Below are positions 2,362 through 12,331 of a stretch of 22,382 nt of DNA, in pieces. The DNA is from a virus. Position 1 is the first letter of the stretch. Every line of letters begins with the position of its first letter. The position numbers and the translations under genes were made by a program. The stretch covers positions 1 to 22,382 of IMG/VR virus record IMGVR_UViG_3300007533_000022; one strand, written 5' to 3'. A model generated the notes under the pieces. The model was given only the letters and a program-made list of their open reading frames with translations. It ran no database searches and was not told the DNA's origin.

Positions 2362-2480
2362 CCATTCCCTGATTTGAGGCGATCCCTTTGTGTTGCTCAA
2401 GACAATATGGGATCATTTAGAACAAAAACAACAAGTTGCGAGACCGATTTCCGTCGCGTTGATGCAAAGTCGAGCGACGC

Positions 2481-2488
2481 CTAAATAC
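2481..2488 (+). promoter_or_regulatory. CTAAATAC motif, possible phage late-type promoter element
   Basis: The 8-mer CTAAATAC lies 43 bases before the reductase ATG, after a possible stem-loop and before the AGGAGA ribosome-binding site (2515-2520). It resembles the T4 late promoter box TATAAATA. Exact copies also occur at 2022-2029 and, on the minus strand, at 19510-19503. Function is inferred only from similarity and position. Confidence 0.3.
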
Positions 2489-2530
2489 TCTCCGCACCCT
2501 ACTAAAACGATAACAGGAGACCCGTTTTCA

Positions 2531-5500
2531 ATGTCGAAATCCTACTTCGATGTGACCAGTAATCCCATCTATTCCGAGTTCATCAATCTCTCCCGATACG
2601 CACGATACCGTGACGATCTTGGCCGACGTGAAGTCTGGCCCGAGACCGTTGCACGGTACTTTGATTTCTTCGACGGCCATATCGAAAAGCATCATCCGAA
2701 GAGTGTCGAAGAGTATCGCAAGATCAGAAAGGAACTGGAGTCGTCGGTATTCAACCTCAAGACCATGCCGTCAATGCGCGCCCTGATGACGGCGGGCAAG
2801 GCGTTGGAACTTGACAACATGGCGGGGTTCAATCCTGTAACCGGTGACACGCGGGTGGTCACCAGAGAGTTGGGAAACATCAACATCTCGGAACTGGAAG
2901 GCAAAGAGTACACGGTTTTGAACAAAAACGGTGAGTGGACCAGTGCCACATTCAAGTCGTACGGCAGCCAACATGTCAGGAAGATCACCCTGCGGCTGGA
3001 CTCAACCACGAAGACGGTGCAAGCGACGTATAATCATCGATGGGTACTGGAGGATGGCCGCGTCAAGGCATCTTATGAGTTGGTCGAGGGAGACCGCATT
3101 GCATTCGTATCGGCTCCCAAGCCGGAACCGGACGCAGACTACATCTTGGGGGTTCGGCATGGGCTCGTATATGGGGATGGAACGGCGCTCACAAGCTGTG
3201 AACGCGTCACTGGCTACCGCATAAGGCTGTATGGCAACAACAAGGAACTGTTGCAGTTCTTTGATGGTTATCCGGTTATCTATCCGGACAGTGCCAACGG
3301 TGATCCGATTGTCATGATGCATGATGGATTCGCGCAGACGCATGCATTGAAAGAGGTACCGGATGCCAGCGAGACCGAGTCCTACCTTCTCGGTTTCATG
3401 CGGGGACTGATTGCCGCAAGCGACAGTGTAGTGAAAATGGGCCGCGTGTCTCTTTATGTATCGGCAGAGGCCGCGTTATGGATCAAGAATCACGGCGAGC
3501 GGTTGGGGTTCACGGTCCAGAGAATAGGCACGCGCTCATCCAATACCAGTAGCGGCAAGAAGCACAGTTACGTAGTGCATCTCAGTCGCTCTTCCGTGGT
3601 GGCCGAGGACTTCCTGTGCTCGTGGCAGAAGTCGAAGTTCGAGTCATGGGATTCCCCCCATTACGTGGTCACGTCGGCCACGGACGGAGGTCTTGGGCGC
3701 GTATACTGCGCTGAAGTCCCGGATACCAACACATTTGTTCTGGAAGGCGGGCTTGTTACCGGAAACTGTTCCTACCTGCCTATCGATGACCCGCGCTGCT
3801 TTGACGAGTTGATGTACATCCTGCTATGCGGGACCGGGGTCGGCTTTTCAGTTGAAGAGCGCTACGTAAACAGGCTCCCCGTCGTCTCGGAAGAGTTCCA
3901 TCATACCGAGACCCCCATTGTGGTTAGTGACTCGAAGATAGGATGGGCGAGTGCTTTGCGCGAGATGATCTCACTGCTGTACGCCGGACGCATCCCGTCG
4001 TGGGACATGAGCCGCGTGCGCCCGGCAGGCGCACGCCTGAAGACGTTTGGGGGGCGTTCCAGCGGTCCCGAACCGCTCAAGGCCCTGTTCCACTTCACGG
4101 TAGAACTCTTCTGTAAGGCTGCCGGGCGGCGTCTCACGACCCTTGAGAGCCATGACCTTGTCTGCAAGATCGCCGACGTGGTCGTGGTCGGGGGCGTACG
4201 GAGAAGTGCCCTCATCTCCCTGACCGATGTAAATGACGACCGCATGCGAGTTGCGAAGTCCGGTCAATGGTGGATCGAGAATCCGCAACGGGCGCTGGCG
4301 AACATCAGCGCGACCTACAACGAGAAACCCTCATTCGAACTGATGCTCAAGGAGTTGGTTGCATTGTATGAGTCTCGTTCCGGTGAACGTGGCATCTTCA
4401 GTCGTTACGCTTCACAGAAACAGGCGGAGAAGAATGGCCGTCGTGAGTCGGATCATGAATATGGCACGAATCCATGCCTGACTGCTGATATGCTGTTACT
4501 CACGGACCGGGGGCTACAGTCTATCGGGGCGCTCGCTTCTCGACATGAGCCATTCATGATCTACAACGGAAACCGCGAGTATCGACCATCCGTTGCATGG
4601 AGAACAGGAGTGAAGCCCGTCTACGAGGTAACGCTGAGCAATGGGTTGTCGTTCAAGGCAACGGCCGATCATCGGGTGGAGGTATGCCGCAAGCAGCACC
4701 CGTCGCAAGATTGCGACACGGAGACGATGGAAAGTCGGGTCGACGCCCTTGCTGTCGGCACAAGGATGAAGACCTTTGTCGGCAATGGCCAATGGCATGG
4801 AGAAGTACCATGTGATTTTACAGAGGCCATAATGGCCGGTTTGTTTCACGGTGCCGGCTATGTGTCCGACGTGGACCCCGATTCCATCTGCGTTGTAATC
4901 GAGGATGATGTTGAAGAAGTGGAAGCGGCGCTTCATTACGTCTATGGGAGCCACGTCCGGAAAACGACATACGCGGATGGGGCCGTCGTCTATACCATCA
5001 TGGGCATCCGAGCGCGACTTGAATCCTTGGGACTGAGTTTCGATCCATTTTCGCAACGGCAATTCCCGCGCGCGGTACTCACATGGTCATCCGACATGGT
5101 ACGGGGATTCGTTCGAGGCGTTTACAGCGCCACGGGCTCATCCATACCGGAGCAGAACCGGATCACGCTCAGGACAACCTGCAAGCCATTCATCGATGAC
5201 ATGCAGCGACTGATGGTCGCCCTCGGTTTCTCTGCGTTTACAACAACAAGTGGAGAAGGCTGCGTTCTCGATGTCGTCGGCTATGATGACTATGAGCGCT
5301 TTCGGCACGAGATCGGATTCTTGCAGCTACACGAATGCGCGATGCCCGCGAACGGTAGTGGTCCCTCCAAGGCCCCTCGTTCCGCAGAAGTGGTGTCGGT
5401 AGCATACGTGGGAGAGGAAGAAGTGTTCGACTTCCATGAGTCGGACACACATTGGGGATGGGTCAATGGCCTCAAGATTCACAACTGTAGCGAAATCATA

Positions 5501-6445
5501 TTGCGCCCGATGGAGACCTGCAATCTGTCCGAGGTCGTGATCCGACCCAATGACACCCTTAAACAACTGAAGGACAAGGTGCGCACGGCCACCATTCTTG
5601 GCACCCTGCAATCAACATTGACCCGCTTTCGTTATGTACGCAAGGCGTGGCAACGCAACGGCGAAGAGGAACGCTTGCTCGGGGTGAGCCTGACGGGCAT
5701 TATGGATCACCCGGTGCTGAATGGTTCACGTACATGGGACGGCACGGAGTCCACCGGGCCTGACAATGACATACTCAAACAGGCGCTGAAAGAACTCAAA
5801 CAGGTTGCCATCGACACGAACAAGCAATGGGCGCAGCAGCTTGGCATCAACCAGTCCGTGGCTATCACGTGTGTGAAACCAAGCGGTACCGTGTCGCAGC
5901 TATGTGATACCTCCTCTGGCATTCATCCGCGTTACTCGAAGTACTACCTTCGTTCCGTGCGCTGTGACACGAGGGACCCGATTGCGCAGTTCATGATCGA
6001 CCGGGGCTTCATTTATGAGCTTGCCCGCTCGAACCCGAACACCTACGTGTTCTACTTCCCGGTCAAGTCCCCGGACCATACCGTGACCTCGGAGCAGGTC
6101 GGGGCGATCCAGCAGCTTGAATTGTGGCGAACCTATCAGGAACACTGGTGCGAGCACAAACCGTCGATGACCTGTTACTATCGCGACCACGAGTTTCTTG
6201 ATGTGGCCTCATGGGTATGGAAGGGTTTTGATCGAATCAGCGGGGTCAGTTTCCTCCCCCACACCGATCATACCTACGAGCAGGCGCCATATATCGAGAT
6301 TTCAAAGGAAACGTACGAAGAATATCTTGACAAACAGCCCGATCCGGCTACAATTGACTGGACTGAACTCGGCCAATATGAATTCGAGGACAATACAACC
6401 GGGCAGCAGGAACTCGCGTGCTCGGCCGGTTCATGTGAGATTTGA
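2531..6445 (+). CDS. nrdJ: Class II (B12-dependent) ribonucleotide reductase with two inteins
   Basis: This precursor of 1304 residues would splice to about 656. It reduces ribonucleotides to deoxyribonucleotides for phage DNA synthesis. The extein matches monomeric adenosylcobalamin-dependent reductases: FNLKTMPSMRAL near the N-terminus, CGTGVGFSVEE, VGGVRRSALISL, NPCSEI...ETCNL and VKPSGTVSQL. By comparison with the Lactobacillus leichmannii enzyme, the NPC cysteine is the thiyl-radical Cys408 and the Cys 11 residues on is Cys419. The first Cys after intein 1 is the Cys119 partner, and the C-terminal CSAGSC pair has the same spacing as Cys731/736. I chose the ATG at 2531 because of AGGAGA 10 bases upstream. 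A GTG at 2390 would add 47 unconserved residues. Mature size is below the roughly 740 of the Lactobacillus enzyme. Confidence 0.92.
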   Translation: MSKSYFDVTSNPIYSEFINLSRYARYRDDLGRREVWPETVARYFDFFDGHIEKHHPKSVEEYRKIRKELESSVFNLKTMPSMRALMTAGKALELDNMAGFNPVTGDTRVVTRELGNINISELEGKEYTVLNKNGEWTSATFKSYGSQHVRKITLRLDSTTKTVQATYNHRWVLEDGRVKASYELVEGDRIAFVSAPKPEPDADYILGVRHGLVYGDGTALTSCERVTGYRIRLYGNNKELLQFFDGYPVIYPDSANGDPIVMMHDGFAQTHALKEVPDASETESYLLGFMRGLIAASDSVVKMGRVSLYVSAEAALWIKNHGERLGFTVQRIGTRSSNTSSGKKHSYVVHLSRSSVVAEDFLCSWQKSKFESWDSPHYVVTSATDGGLGRVYCAEVPDTNTFVLEGGLVTGNCSYLPIDDPRCFDELMYILLCGTGVGFSVEERYVNRLPVVSEEFHHTETPIVVSDSKIGWASALREMISLLYAGRIPSWDMSRVRPAGARLKTFGGRSSGPEPLKALFHFTVELFCKAAGRRLTTLESHDLVCKIADVVVVGGVRRSALISLTDVNDDRMRVAKSGQWWIENPQRALANISATYNEKPSFELMLKELVALYESRSGERGIFSRYASQKQAEKNGRRESDHEYGTNPCLTADMLLLTDRGLQSIGALASRHEPFMIYNGNREYRPSVAWRTGVKPVYEVTLSNGLSFKATADHRVEVCRKQHPSQDCDTETMESRVDALAVGTRMKTFVGNGQWHGEVPCDFTEAIMAGLFHGAGYVSDVDPDSICVVIEDDVEEVEAALHYVYGSHVRKTTYADGAVVYTIMGIRARLESLGLSFDPFSQRQFPRAVLTWSSDMVRGFVRGVYSATGSSIPEQNRITLRTTCKPFIDDMQRLMVALGFSAFTTTSGEGCVLDVVGYDDYERFRHEIGFLQLHECAMPANGSGPSKAPRSAEVVSVAYVGEEEVFDFHESDTHWGWVNGLKIHNCSEIILRPMETCNLSEVVIRPNDTLKQLKDKVRTATILGTLQSTLTRFRYVRKAWQRNGEEERLLGVSLTGIMDHPVLNGSRTWDGTESTGPDNDILKQALKELKQVAIDTNKQWAQQLGINQSVAITCVKPSGTVSQLCDTSSGIHPRYSKYYLRSVRCDTRDPIAQFMIDRGFIYELARSNPNTYVFYFPVKSPDHTVTSEQVGAIQQLELWRTYQEHWCEHKPSMTCYYRDHEFLDVASWVWKGFDRISGVSFLPHTDHTYEQAPYIEISKETYEEYLDKQPDPATIDWTELGQYEFEDNTTGQQELACSAGSCEI
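2834..3766 (+). other. Intein 1 in the reductase (311 aa, class 3-like, Pro1)
   Basis: The intein lies between extein residues GFN and CSYLPID. It starts PVTGDTRVV, with proline (codon CCT) where the nucleophilic Cys1 normally sits, and ends GGLVTGN followed by +1 Cys. Block B reads ATYNHRW (Thr65, His68, Trp70), block F reads RVYCAEV (Cys292), and Thr309 lies two residues before the terminal Asn311. Trp at B:12, Cys at F:4 and Thr at G:5 form the WCT signature of class 3 inteins, which splice without an N-terminal nucleophile. The penultimate residue is Gly, not His. A central LAGLIDADG-type region has one intact-looking motif (residues 104-117, with GDG) and one degraded motif (185-198, IAASD), so homing activity is doubtful. 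Confidence 0.9.
4475..5485 (+). other. Intein 2 in the reductase (337 aa, class 1)
   Basis: The intein lies between extein GTNP and CSEIILRP. It has canonical ends: Cys1 in CLTADMLLLTDRG, block B TADH (Thr63, His66), block F EVFDFHESDTHWGW, and a terminal His336-Asn337 before +1 Cys. It therefore should splice by the standard class 1 pathway. The middle holds two LAGLIDADG-like segments, IMAGLFHGAGYV and VRGFVRGVYSATGS. In both, the usual catalytic aspartates are replaced (GAG instead of GDG; SAT instead of DAD), so the homing endonuclease is probably inactive. Splicing restores the conserved NPCxE motif of the reductase active site. Confidence 0.93.
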
Positions 6446-9713: not shown

Positions 9714-11414
9714 ATGTATATCGACGCGGAACGCATTCGAGGTACGAATGACGTCATGGTGTGGTGTCGAGACGACAAGGGCACGCTCTATACCTATCAG
9801 GACACCATGAAGCACTACTGCTACGTGGAGAGCCCCAAGGGAGAGTATCAATCCATCTTTGGCCACAAACTGGCCCGAGTAGACTTTGATACGTGGGGTG
9901 CCTTCGAGCGATACAAGCAGAGCAAATCCAACCTGTTCGAGTCGGATATCAATTCGATCTACAAGTACCTCTCCGATACCTTTCATGATGCCTCGCCGGG
10001 AACACTCAATGTCGGACTGTTTGACATCGAGGTCTATCCCAATCTGGAGGCAGGAAAGGGGTATCCAATCCACGACGATCCGCACGGGTACATCAACTCG
10101 ATCTCCCTGTTCGACCGCACGAAACAGGTGTATCACCTGTTCTTGCTGGACTCGGACCATATCACGGTCCAGTCCCCGGACGGCCTGCCGGTCGAACACC
10201 ATTACCATTCACAGGAAATACACCTGCTTTATGACTTCTTCCATACCATCAAGCCGATAGACATTCTCAGCGCTTGGCATGGTGACGGCTTCGACATCCC
10301 CTACATGATCGCGCGCACGGCCATGTTGCTGGGACCCAATGCCACCAGACATTTCTGTCGGAGTGACTTCCGGCCGATTGCTCGTACCCTCAATGACGAC
10401 TACGGTAATGAAGAGACCCGGTACATGTTGGTCGGGCGCCCGCACATTGACATGCTCAAAGCCTACAAGAAGTTCACGTTCGAAGAGCGGCCCTCCTACA
10501 AGCTCGACAGTATTGCCGAGGAAGAGGTCGGTGAACGCAAGACCGAGTACAGTGGTGACCTCGGCAGGCTCTACAACGAAGACCGCCAGACCTTCTATGA
10601 CTACTCCCTGCGCGATACCTACCTACTCAAGAAGCTGGATGACAAGCTGCGCCATATTGACCTAGTGGTGACCATGGCACGGCAGGCCAGCGTTCGTTTC
10701 AACGACGTCTTTGGCAGCATTCGGTATCTGGAACACACGATTCTCAACTACTGCCATTTTCACAAGGACCCGATGCTGATCGTCCCTGACAAGAAGGACC
10801 ATCTACGGGAAGCGTTTCCGGGGGCATTGGTATTCAAGACGATGACCGGGGTTCATGGTTGGTCCACGTCCATCGACCTGACCTCACTATACCCATCCGT
10901 GATCATGGCACTCGGGATCAGTCCGGAGTCCATTGTCATGCAGTGTGAGAGTCGCGGAGAGGATTTCGTTCGAATCGTGGAACGTCAAGAGACCATGGTC
11001 ACCGTGGTGGTGCGCAACAATTTGACGGATGAACGGGAGTCGTTCACCATCAGCGCCCGTGAACTTGACGATGTGATCCGTAGCAATGGCTACACGCTTT
11101 CTGCCAATGGCACCATCTTCGATGGCAGGGGTGGTATCATTCCCGAAGTGATTCGTCTGTGGTTTGAAACTCGAAAGCAATTGAAAGACCGGATGAAAGT
11201 CTGCGCGAAGGCAGGCGACCACGAGGGCGAGAAGTTCTACGACATGCGCCAACACATCCAGAAGATCAATCTAAACTCACTCTACGGCATGTTGGCCAAT
11301 CCGTTCTCCCGTTTCTTTGATATCGAAATGGCCCGCTCCATCACGCTCACCGGTCAGGAGATCGCGAAACACCAGACGCGGATGGCAGATGAGATCGTCA
11401 GGGGCGCCGTATGA
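9714..11414 (+). CDS. 43A: Family B DNA polymerase, N-terminal part (gp43A)
   Basis: The 566-residue product is the exonuclease plus most of the polymerase domain of a T4 gp43-like replicative polymerase. Visible motifs: Exo I FDIE (Asp104, Glu106), Exo II GDGFDIP (Asp194), Exo III YDYSLRD (Asp301), polymerase motif A DLTSLYPS (Asp388) and motif B KINLNSLYG (Lys517, Tyr524). The proofreading site is complete. The protein stops 40 residues after motif B, before motif C, which lies in the next gene; neither part can polymerise alone. The stop overlaps the 43B start as ATGA. Split gene 43 is known in some T4-like phages of Aeromonas. The ATG follows the stop of the small membrane gene directly. 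Confidence 0.95.
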   Translation: MYIDAERIRGTNDVMVWCRDDKGTLYTYQDTMKHYCYVESPKGEYQSIFGHKLARVDFDTWGAFERYKQSKSNLFESDINSIYKYLSDTFHDASPGTLNVGLFDIEVYPNLEAGKGYPIHDDPHGYINSISLFDRTKQVYHLFLLDSDHITVQSPDGLPVEHHYHSQEIHLLYDFFHTIKPIDILSAWHGDGFDIPYMIARTAMLLGPNATRHFCRSDFRPIARTLNDDYGNEETRYMLVGRPHIDMLKAYKKFTFEERPSYKLDSIAEEEVGERKTEYSGDLGRLYNEDRQTFYDYSLRDTYLLKKLDDKLRHIDLVVTMARQASVRFNDVFGSIRYLEHTILNYCHFHKDPMLIVPDKKDHLREAFPGALVFKTMTGVHGWSTSIDLTSLYPSVIMALGISPESIVMQCESRGEDFVRIVERQETMVTVVVRNNLTDERESFTISARELDDVIRSNGYTLSANGTIFDGRGGIIPEVIRLWFETRKQLKDRMKVCAKAGDHEGEKFYDMRQHIQKINLNSLYGMLANPFSRFFDIEMARSITLTGQEIAKHQTRMADEIVRGAV

Positions 11415-12331
11415 GCACGCGTCCGAGGAGGGGCACCGCCGGTAGCTTTCATACGTGGTTCGAGCAGGAGGACGGCAGCATGCGCCTCCTGCAATACGAT
11501 GCCACACATGTCATCGCGGGCGACACGGATTCATCATACGTCTCGTTGGATTCCATCTTCAAGCCCGATGCGAGCGTCGATGATGTAGTCAGTTATGCCA
11601 ACAATCTTGGCATAAAGGTCAACCAGAGCTTCCCGCGATTCATGCAACGGGTGTTCAATGTCGGCGAAAATCGCATGTCCTTCAACGGCGAGCAGGTGAT
11701 CGTGACCGACCGGGAAGTCGTGGCCGACAAGGCCCTGTTCAAGGCCAAGAAGAACTACATGATGCACTTGGTCGACAAGGACGGGAAGCGCATAGACAAG
11801 AACAAGATTACCGGCTTGGAGATCATCAAGGCGGATACCCCCGGTTGTGTGCAGGATTTCCTTCTGAAAGCTGTCCTGAGCATTGTTGATGGCGCTGACT
11901 ATGAAACGATCCGGGACATGATTGCGGAGTTCAAGTCCGAGTATCACGAGAAGACGTTTCAGGAGATCGGCCGGCCAATGTCGGTGAAAGTGCTCAAGAA
12001 GTGCGAAGACGAATACAAGACGTCCGGGACCATGAAGGGGTTCAGTTACCATGTCCGCGCCGCCATGTTTTACAATAGCCTCTGCGGACCGAACGACATA
12101 AGAATCCGGTCGGGTGACAAGATCGCAATCTGTTACATCGACCATCCAGACAGCAAGTACATTGCGGTTCCCATCGATGCCGACGTACTACCAGACTTTG
12201 TCGCCGACATGAGCGTGGATTGGAAGACGCAATGGAAGACTGTAGAGAAGAAAATAGGAAACTATCTCAAGTCCCTAGGATGGGACATCCAGAGCCGTCA
12301 GGAAGATGTTCTCAATCAATTCATAGAGTAA
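11411..12331 (+). CDS. 43B: Family B DNA polymerase, C-terminal part (gp43B)
   Basis: The 306-residue product carries polymerase motif C, AGDTDSSYVSLD (Asp38, Asp40), which supplies a catalytic aspartate to the palm, followed by a thumb region containing KAKKNYMMHLVDKDGKR and DTPGCVQDFL. The C-terminal end (EDVLNQFIE) may serve for clamp binding, as the gp43 C-terminus does in T4. The ATG at 11411 overlaps the 43A stop, and AGGGG lies 6 bases upstream, so reinitiation by the same ribosome is likely and would give equal amounts of the two parts. About 25 N-terminal residues have no obvious counterpart in unsplit gp43 and may help the parts associate. Confidence 0.93.
   Translation: MSTRPRRGTAGSFHTWFEQEDGSMRLLQYDATHVIAGDTDSSYVSLDSIFKPDASVDDVVSYANNLGIKVNQSFPRFMQRVFNVGENRMSFNGEQVIVTDREVVADKALFKAKKNYMMHLVDKDGKRIDKNKITGLEIIKADTPGCVQDFLLKAVLSIVDGADYETIRDMIAEFKSEYHEKTFQEIGRPMSVKVLKKCEDEYKTSGTMKGFSYHVRAAMFYNSLCGPNDIRIRSGDKIAICYIDHPDSKYIAVPIDADVLPDFVADMSVDWKTQWKTVEKKIGNYLKSLGWDIQSRQEDVLNQFIE

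What the first reader, a model, noticed from the sequence alone, without database searches (positions are those of the whole stretch)
2834..3766. Apparent class 3 intein with proline at position 1 in a class II ribonucleotide reductase
Seen: the first intein residue is Pro (CCT), with Trp70 in block B, Cys292 at block F position 4, Thr309 at block G position 5, terminal Asn311 and penultimate Gly. Known: class 3 inteins lack an N-terminal nucleophile and use a Trp-Cys-Thr triad, with the block F Cys attacking the N-terminal splice junction; the prototype is the mycobacteriophage Bethlehem DnaB intein, where +1 is Ser or Thr. Here +1 is Cys, which appears atypical. Inference: functional splicing through the block F Cys.
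Basis: partly seen in the sequence, partly recalled or inferred. Interest (0 to 1): 0.8.

Follow-up and report, generated by a model that had tools for sequence, protein, structure and literature searches.

The report
Proline-start self-splicing insert in reductase
A phage DNA-precursor enzyme carries a self-removing protein insert that lacks the usual first cysteine and most likely cuts itself out with an internal cysteine; relatives suggest this rare "class 3" chemistry evolved a second time here, from inserts that had both cysteines.

Summary
Intein 1 (2834-3766, 311 aa) lies in a phage class II ribonucleotide reductase (RNR). It begins with Pro (CCT) and has Trp70 (B:12), Cys292 (F:4), Thr309 (G:5), Gly310, Asn311 and Cys+1. 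Its model is a HINT fold plus LAGLIDADG domain (pLDDT 95). Pro1 is not a sequencing error: at least eight other distinct IMG/VR inteins at the same RNR site keep Pro1 plus WCT, by three Pro codons, with synonymous sites saturated.

The refinement is lineage. This clade is nested in a broad family of inteins that have BOTH Cys1 and WCT and end in TGN|C. The canonical class 3 inteins (DnaB/TerL type, DxxH, THN|S/T) form a separate clade. A full-length tree rejects uniting the two (AU p=0.0004); splicing-domain columns alone cannot (p=0.27). Best reading: class 3-type splicing through Cys292, acquired independently by loss of a redundant Cys1. That bears on the published view that class 3 arose once and had to pass through a splicing-dead intermediate. 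Splicing itself is not shown. The homing endonuclease is probably decayed. A second, class 1 intein in the same gene sits before the thiyl-radical Cys408.

The parts
2390..6445 (+). Class II (adenosylcobalamin-type) ribonucleoside-triphosphate reductase precursor with two inteins; listed ORF starts at GTG 2390, but the likelier start is ATG 2531 (AGGAG upstream)
   Evidence: phrog_367 E 4e-171; TIGR02505 E 1.6e-81 in 3 stretches; homologue L016 matches L. leichmannii RTPR 1l1l
2834..3766 (+). Intein 1: Pro1, class 3-type WCT signature, TGN|C end
   Evidence: structure
2834..2836 (+). Pro1 codon CCT in place of a Cys/Ser/Thr nucleophile
3026..3043 (+). Block B: Thr65 (B:7), His68 (B:10), Trp70 (B:12)
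3131..3658 (+). LAGLIDADG homing-endonuclease domain (about residues 100-275): first motif HGLVYGDG intact; second motif reads IAASDS where relatives read LAADGS, so a catalytic Asp is probably lost
3707..3709 (+). Cys292 (F:4), inferred first nucleophile and branch point
3758..3766 (+). Block G Thr309-Gly310-Asn311
3767..3769 (+). Cys+1 = RNR redox cysteine (L. leichmannii Cys119), second nucleophile of splicing
4475..5485 (+). Intein 2: class 1 type (Cys1, Asp at F:4, IHN|C), LAGLIDADG Asps lost (HGAG, SATG), inserted before the thiyl-radical cysteine (Cys408)
5486..5488 (+). Cys+1 of intein 2 = RNR thiyl cysteine (L. leichmannii Cys408); Cys419 equivalent follows 11 residues later

Best explanation
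Intein 1 is a cis-splicing intein that works by the class 3 pathway. His68 (helped by Trp70 and Thr309) activates Cys292, which attacks the Asn(-1)-Pro1 bond and forms a block F thioester branch. The N-extein then moves to Cys+1, Asn311 cyclises, and an S-N shift leaves native FN-CSY in the reductase. The Pro1 state is a derived loss of Cys1 within a family that already carried Cys1 together with the complete WCT triad. Class 3-type splicing would therefore have arisen here independently of canonical (DnaB/TerL) class 3 inteins, through redundant intermediates. Sequence, fold, conservation and phylogeny are shown; the chemistry and order of steps are inferred.
For: Residues and junctions are exact. 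[quoted passage not shown] A profile of the family hits the engineered WCT variant of gp41-1 (6riz, E 5e-5) far better than wild-type gp41-1 (6qaz, E 0.21). At least nine distinct Pro1 inteins at the same site keep W, C, T, H and N, with pN 0.19-0.41 against saturated pS 0.76-1.0. Nesting: Pro1 clade 100/97 with same-site Cys1 inteins L111 and L113 as sisters (98/86), inside Cys1-WCT inteins on starred branches, canonical class 3 separate (100/99). AU test rejects Pro1 + canonical, p=0.0004. Window scores 238.9 bits with the Cys1-WCT HMM and 2.6 with the canonical class 3 HMM. Precedent: in Bvi IcmO (class 3, Cys+1) only Cys F:4 can start splicing (PMC5222942).
Against: No splicing data. It lacks three usual companions of canonical class 3 inteins: DxxH in block B, penultimate His, Ser/Thr at +1. 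With splicing-domain columns only (129), one clade with canonical class 3 is not rejected (AU p=0.27), and the full-length tree includes the endonuclease domain, which can have its own history. The root is not inferred, so loss rather than gain of Cys1 rests on parsimony. The intein profiles of Pfam and NCBIfam score this intein below or near cut-off.
Confidence: 0.78

Rival explanations
1. Class 2-like bypass: Cys+1 attacks the Asn-Pro bond directly and Cys292 is not the first nucleophile.
For: Cys+1 is present and position 1 is non-nucleophilic, as in KlbA inteins (PMC4031507).
Against: Class 2 inteins need Asp F:4 and have Ala1 and Ser G:6 (PMC4031507); here F:4 is Cys and G:6 is Gly in every Pro1 member. 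Cys292 is invariant. In the Cys+1 class 3 intein Bvi IcmO, Cys+1 could not replace Cys F:4 (PMC5222942).
Confidence: 0.07
2. True member of the canonical class 3 lineage that entered RNR and adopted TxxH, TGN and Cys+1 secondarily.
For: Same WCT signature; Pro1 also occurs in canonical members (Lopton TerL L205, Endozoicomonas L210); splicing-domain AU test does not exclude it (p=0.27).
Against: Full-length tree nests it in Cys1-WCT inteins, AU p=0.0004; HMM 238.9 against 2.6 bits; shares TxxH and TGN|C with that family.
Confidence: 0.12
3. Splicing-dead or cleavage-only intein; the reductase is non-functional or made from another copy.
For: The second LAGLIDADG motif is altered, and the Arsp-FB24 intein shows that decayed class 3 inteins exist (PMC3196547).
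Against: All splicing residues conserved, frame open, strong purifying selection across the clade; RNR catalytic Cys positions retained; the insertion abuts an essential cysteine, so no splicing means no enzyme.
Confidence: 0.06
4. Assembly or sequencing error hides a Cys or Ser codon at position 1.
For: Single virus record; no reads available.
Against: CCT to TGY needs two changes; Pro1 is in at least eight other distinct inteins by three codons.
Confidence: 0.01

Closest known systems
Canonical class 3 inteins (MP-Bethlehem type, MchDnaB1, MsmDnaB1, Dra Snf2; here Gaia TerL and 11 others)
   Same: No N-terminal Cys/Ser/Thr in most, Trp B:12, Cys F:4, Thr G:5, His B:10, HINT fold (VIA Z 18.4 to 6bs8 and 6rix)
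   Different: They have mostly D/SxxH, THN and Ser/Thr at +1 in helicase/terminase ATPases; this has TxxH, TGN and Cys+1 in RNR and does not group with them
MP-Catera Gp206 type (Ser1 + WCT; class 3 by mutagenesis according to Tori and Perler 2011, from memory of the abstract; presumed relative FudgeTart L201)
   Same: Shows that a position 1 nucleophile can be dispensable when WCT is present
   Different: L201 lies in the canonical clade; the window intein has lost the nucleophile outright
Bvi IcmO intein (PMC5222942)
   Same: Class 3 with Cys+1; block F Cys obligatory
   Different: Host gene and lineage; sequence not compared here
AceL NrdHF split class 3 intein (PMC7891396)
   Same: Class 3 mechanism in a probable-phage RNR gene, no penultimate His
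   Different: Split, RNR beta subunit, Ala1, MCT triad
Cys1-WCT inteins of Thermobifida phage P318 RNR (L001), NrdD of Morganella phage MP1 (L004), DnaG primases (L176-L195), IMG/VR RNR L111 and L113
   Same: Roughly 25-45% identical, same WCT and TGN|C (or TGQ|C); L111 and L113 at the same RNR site
   Different: All retain Cys1

Membership tests
Class 3 inteins (mechanistic class, WCT signature) | No Cys/Ser/Thr at position 1 | tested here: met
   Pro1 in the window and in 8 further distinct inteins
Class 3 inteins (mechanistic class, WCT signature) | Trp B:12, Cys F:4, Thr G:5 | tested here: met
   W70, C292, T309 by alignment
Class 3 inteins (mechanistic class, WCT signature) | His B:10 and C-terminal Asn | tested here: met
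   H68, N311
Class 3 inteins (mechanistic class, WCT signature) | HINT splicing fold | tested here: met
   AF2 model; Foldseek and VIA hits to inteins
Class 3 inteins (mechanistic class, WCT signature) | Splices through an obligatory block F branched intermediate | not testable with these tools
   needs expression and mutagenesis
Canonical class 3 clade (DnaB/TerL/Snf2 type) | Groups with canonical class 3 inteins | tested here: not met
   Separate clades; AU p=0.0004 full length. Splicing-domain columns alone do not decide (p=0.27)
Canonical class 3 clade (DnaB/TerL/Snf2 type) | Ser/Thr+1, penultimate His, DxxH block B (usual, not absolute) | tested here: not met
   Cys+1, Gly310, T65xxH68; usual features from PMC5222942 and PMC12245125
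Class 2 inteins (KlbA) | Asp F:4 with Ala1 and Ser G:6 | tested here: not met
   Cys F:4, Pro1, Gly G:6; features from PMC4031507
Class 1 inteins | Cys/Ser/Thr nucleophile at position 1 | tested here: not met
   Pro1
Class II monomeric RNR (RTPR, TIGR02505) | Active-site Cys119, Cys408, Cys419 and C-terminal Cys pair | tested here: met
   FN|C, NP|C, METC and ACSAGSC align with 1l1l via homologue L016

The most novel reading that the evidence does not exclude
Class 3 protein splicing evolved more than once. In phage RNR inteins it arose from dual-nucleophile (Cys1 + complete WCT) ancestors by dispensable loss of Cys1, with no splicing-dead intermediate. L219 may hold another such loss: a Pro1, Cys F:4 intein (about 4393-5343 in the locus) at the thiyl-Cys site of a different RNR, without Trp and Thr.
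Probability: 0.55. Interest if true: 0.75.

Novelty: new variant of a known kind. Interest (0 to 1): 0.62.

Why it matters
Published work holds that class 3 inteins are monophyletic, that the first of them must have spliced badly or not at all (PMC3196547), and that class 3 is unlikely to evolve directly from class 1 (PMC7664689). A living series in phage RNRs would show a workable route and make it testable by mutating position 1 in natural intermediates. The series is Ser1 with Asp F:4 (W-D-T), then Cys1 with W-C-T, then Pro1 with W-C-T. The family also offers Cys+1, TGN-ending class 3-type inteins for protein engineering, of which very few are characterised.

Tried and rejected
A single-sequence scan of viral contigs with the window intein found nothing; a degenerate junction pattern then found L103, and profile scans found the clade. 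Phmmer against PDB with the single sequence gave only chance hits. Bethlehem, Catera, Cali, Solon and ScottMcG records were not held under the accessions tried; canonical class 3 was reached through Gaia TerL instead. Helicase DnaB of RedRock led to no inteins in the rows listed. dN/dS could not be computed because synonymous sites are saturated. Sequencing error at position 1: rejected. The profile scans used patterns from the endonuclease motif, so inteins without that domain are under-sampled.

Full report
What is there. The window is a 22.4-kb virus record with T4-like replication genes: DNA polymerase, clamp loader and a weak match to single-strand binding protein. Its class II RNR gene (2390-6445; likelier start ATG 2531 behind AGGAG) carries two inteins. 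Intein 1 is 2834-3766 (311 aa) and intein 2 is 4475-5485 (337 aa). The RNR is identified by phrog_367 (E 4e-171) and TIGR02505.

Insertion sites. An intein-free homologue (L016) aligned to L. leichmannii RTPR (1l1l) puts intein 1 directly before Cys119, one of the redox pair, and intein 2 directly before Cys408, the thiyl-radical cysteine (numbering read from that alignment; the roles of these cysteines are established knowledge). Both inteins thus use an enzyme-essential cysteine as their +1 nucleophile. About 70 of 80 related IMG/VR RNRs have an empty site 1, reading YN-CSY.

Observation. P1 (CCT), T65-x-x-H68-x-W70, C292, T309-G310-N311 and C+1 are all present. In an alignment of 39 relatives T65, H68, W70 and C292 are invariant, and T309 and N311 nearly so. 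The model has pLDDT 95.3 and pTM 0.92. It matches PI-PfuI (Z 22.4, 297 residues, rmsd 3.6) and, over its splicing domain, the class 3 inteins 6bs8 and 6rix (Z 18.4, rmsd 2.1-2.2), tied with several class 1 inteins. The fold therefore shows an intein but does not by itself decide the class.

Pro1 is real and probably selected. A degenerate junction pattern found L103. Profile scans found L104, L106, L107, L108, L109/L110, L112/L213 and L212. All have Pro1, Trp, Cys, Thr, Gly, Asn and Cys+1. Pro is encoded CCT, CCA or CCC. Among the eight compared, synonymous sites are saturated (pS 0.76-1.0) while pN is 0.19-0.41. The clade has thus kept Pro1 through divergence that erased the synonymous signal.

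Wider family. Phage relatives at RNR sites (class II, NrdD, NrdA) and GTDB relatives in DnaG primases (before a cysteine of the zinc finger) nearly all carry Cys1 plus Trp/Phe, Cys and Thr, ending mostly TGN|C or TGQ|C. Same-site RNR inteins L111 and L113 have Cys1 with full WCT. Three RNR inteins (second inteins of L138, L152 and L158) have Ser1 and Asp at F:4 but Trp/Phe and Thr and TGN|C. That gives a plausible series S1-WDT, C1-WCT, P1-WCT; its direction is inference.

Lineage. Canonical class 3 inteins were collected from Gaia TerL, which PMC5050341 discusses with the class 3 group (TerL1-e), and tblastn relatives. They end THN|S/T, mostly with D or S at B:7, and position 1 is Ala, Ser, Pro, Asp, Gly or Cys. 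On 129 splicing-domain columns, with the diagnostic columns removed, canonical class 3 (100/100) and the Pro1 clade (100/100) are separate, and the Pro1 clade lies inside the Cys1-WCT family (98/93). The AU test on those columns does not reject joining them (p=0.27). On 309 full-length columns the nesting is resolved by starred branches, with L111 and L113 as sisters of the Pro1 clade, and joining is rejected (p=0.0004). The endonuclease domain contributes to that result. HMM scores agree: window 238.9 bits to Cys1-WCT, 2.6 to canonical class 3.

Mechanism. With no nucleophile at position 1, either Cys292 or Cys+1 must attack Asn(-1)-Pro1. Class 2 needs Asp at F:4 (PMC4031507), absent here. 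In Bvi IcmO, called in 2016 the only class 3 intein known with Cys+1, Cys F:4 is essential and Cys+1 cannot replace it (PMC5222942). The class 3 path through Cys292 is therefore the best-supported; it was not tested here.

Endonuclease. The first LAGLIDADG motif (GLVYGDG) is intact; the second reads IAASDS where relatives read LAADGS, so nuclease activity is probably lost in this copy while the splicing residues are kept. Intein 2 has lost both motif acids (HGAG, SATG; sequence).

Novelty. Class 3 inteins are known in large numbers (1701 in nr, PMC7891396), and a split one is known in an RNR beta gene, so a class 3 signature in an RNR is not new in kind, and some Pro1 members may be in that set. 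I found no paper in the held library describing Pro1 or Cys1-WCT inteins in class II RNR; that library is incomplete. What looks new is the evidence for an independent origin through Cys1-WCT intermediates. It bears on statements that class 3 is monophyletic with a poorly splicing ancestor (PMC3196547) and unlikely to evolve directly from class 1 (PMC7664689).

A further lead. L219 holds a Pro1 intein with Cys at F:4 but Phe at B:12 and no Thr at G:5, ending ISN|C, at the RNA|CTEV site of another RNR. Uninterrupted NACTEVT coding is found in at least 120 viral contigs and NAPCTEVT in one, so Pro most likely belongs to the intein. It is a single genome and was not put in the tree.

Noticed in passing
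window 9714-11414 and 11411-12331: T4-like DNA polymerase (phrog_262) is split into two ORFs overlapping by ATGA, covering profile 14-561 and 571-850: a natural split gene or a frameshift.
   Followed up: no
window 4475-5485: Second intein, class 1 type (Cys1, Asp F:4, IHN|C), before the thiyl-radical Cys408, with both LAGLIDADG acidic residues lost; two inteins of different classes in one gene.
   Followed up: partly
L103 8640-9493: In this Pro1 relative the RNR frame breaks right at the NPC|S site where the window has intein 2, followed by an ORF resembling a homing endonuclease: perhaps an intron at the intein's site, cut by the contig end.
   Followed up: no
L103 1071-1609: Group I intron (RF00028, 57.4 bits) with an HNH-like ORF inside a DNA polymerase gene.
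   Followed up: no
L219 4393-5343: RNR intein with Pro1, Cys F:4, Phe B:12 and ISN|C end at the thiyl-Cys site: a possible second independent loss of the position 1 nucleophile.
   Followed up: partly
L176-L195, e.g. L182 2998-3939: Cys1-WCT inteins before a cysteine of the CHC2 zinc finger of DnaG primases in Sphingomonadales and Azospirillum.
   Followed up: partly
L138, L152, L158 (second inteins), L162: Ser1 inteins with Trp/Phe, Asp F:4 and TGN|C in RNR genes: class 1 relatives that already hold Trp and Thr of the WCT triad.
   Followed up: partly
L001, L008, L010-L012, L146, L153, L193: Family members whose last intein residue is Gln (TGQ|C) instead of Asn.
   Followed up: no
L014 2498-3424: Cys1-WCT intein in a fused MobF relaxase/primase on Skermanella rosea plasmid pSR-4.
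   Followed up: no
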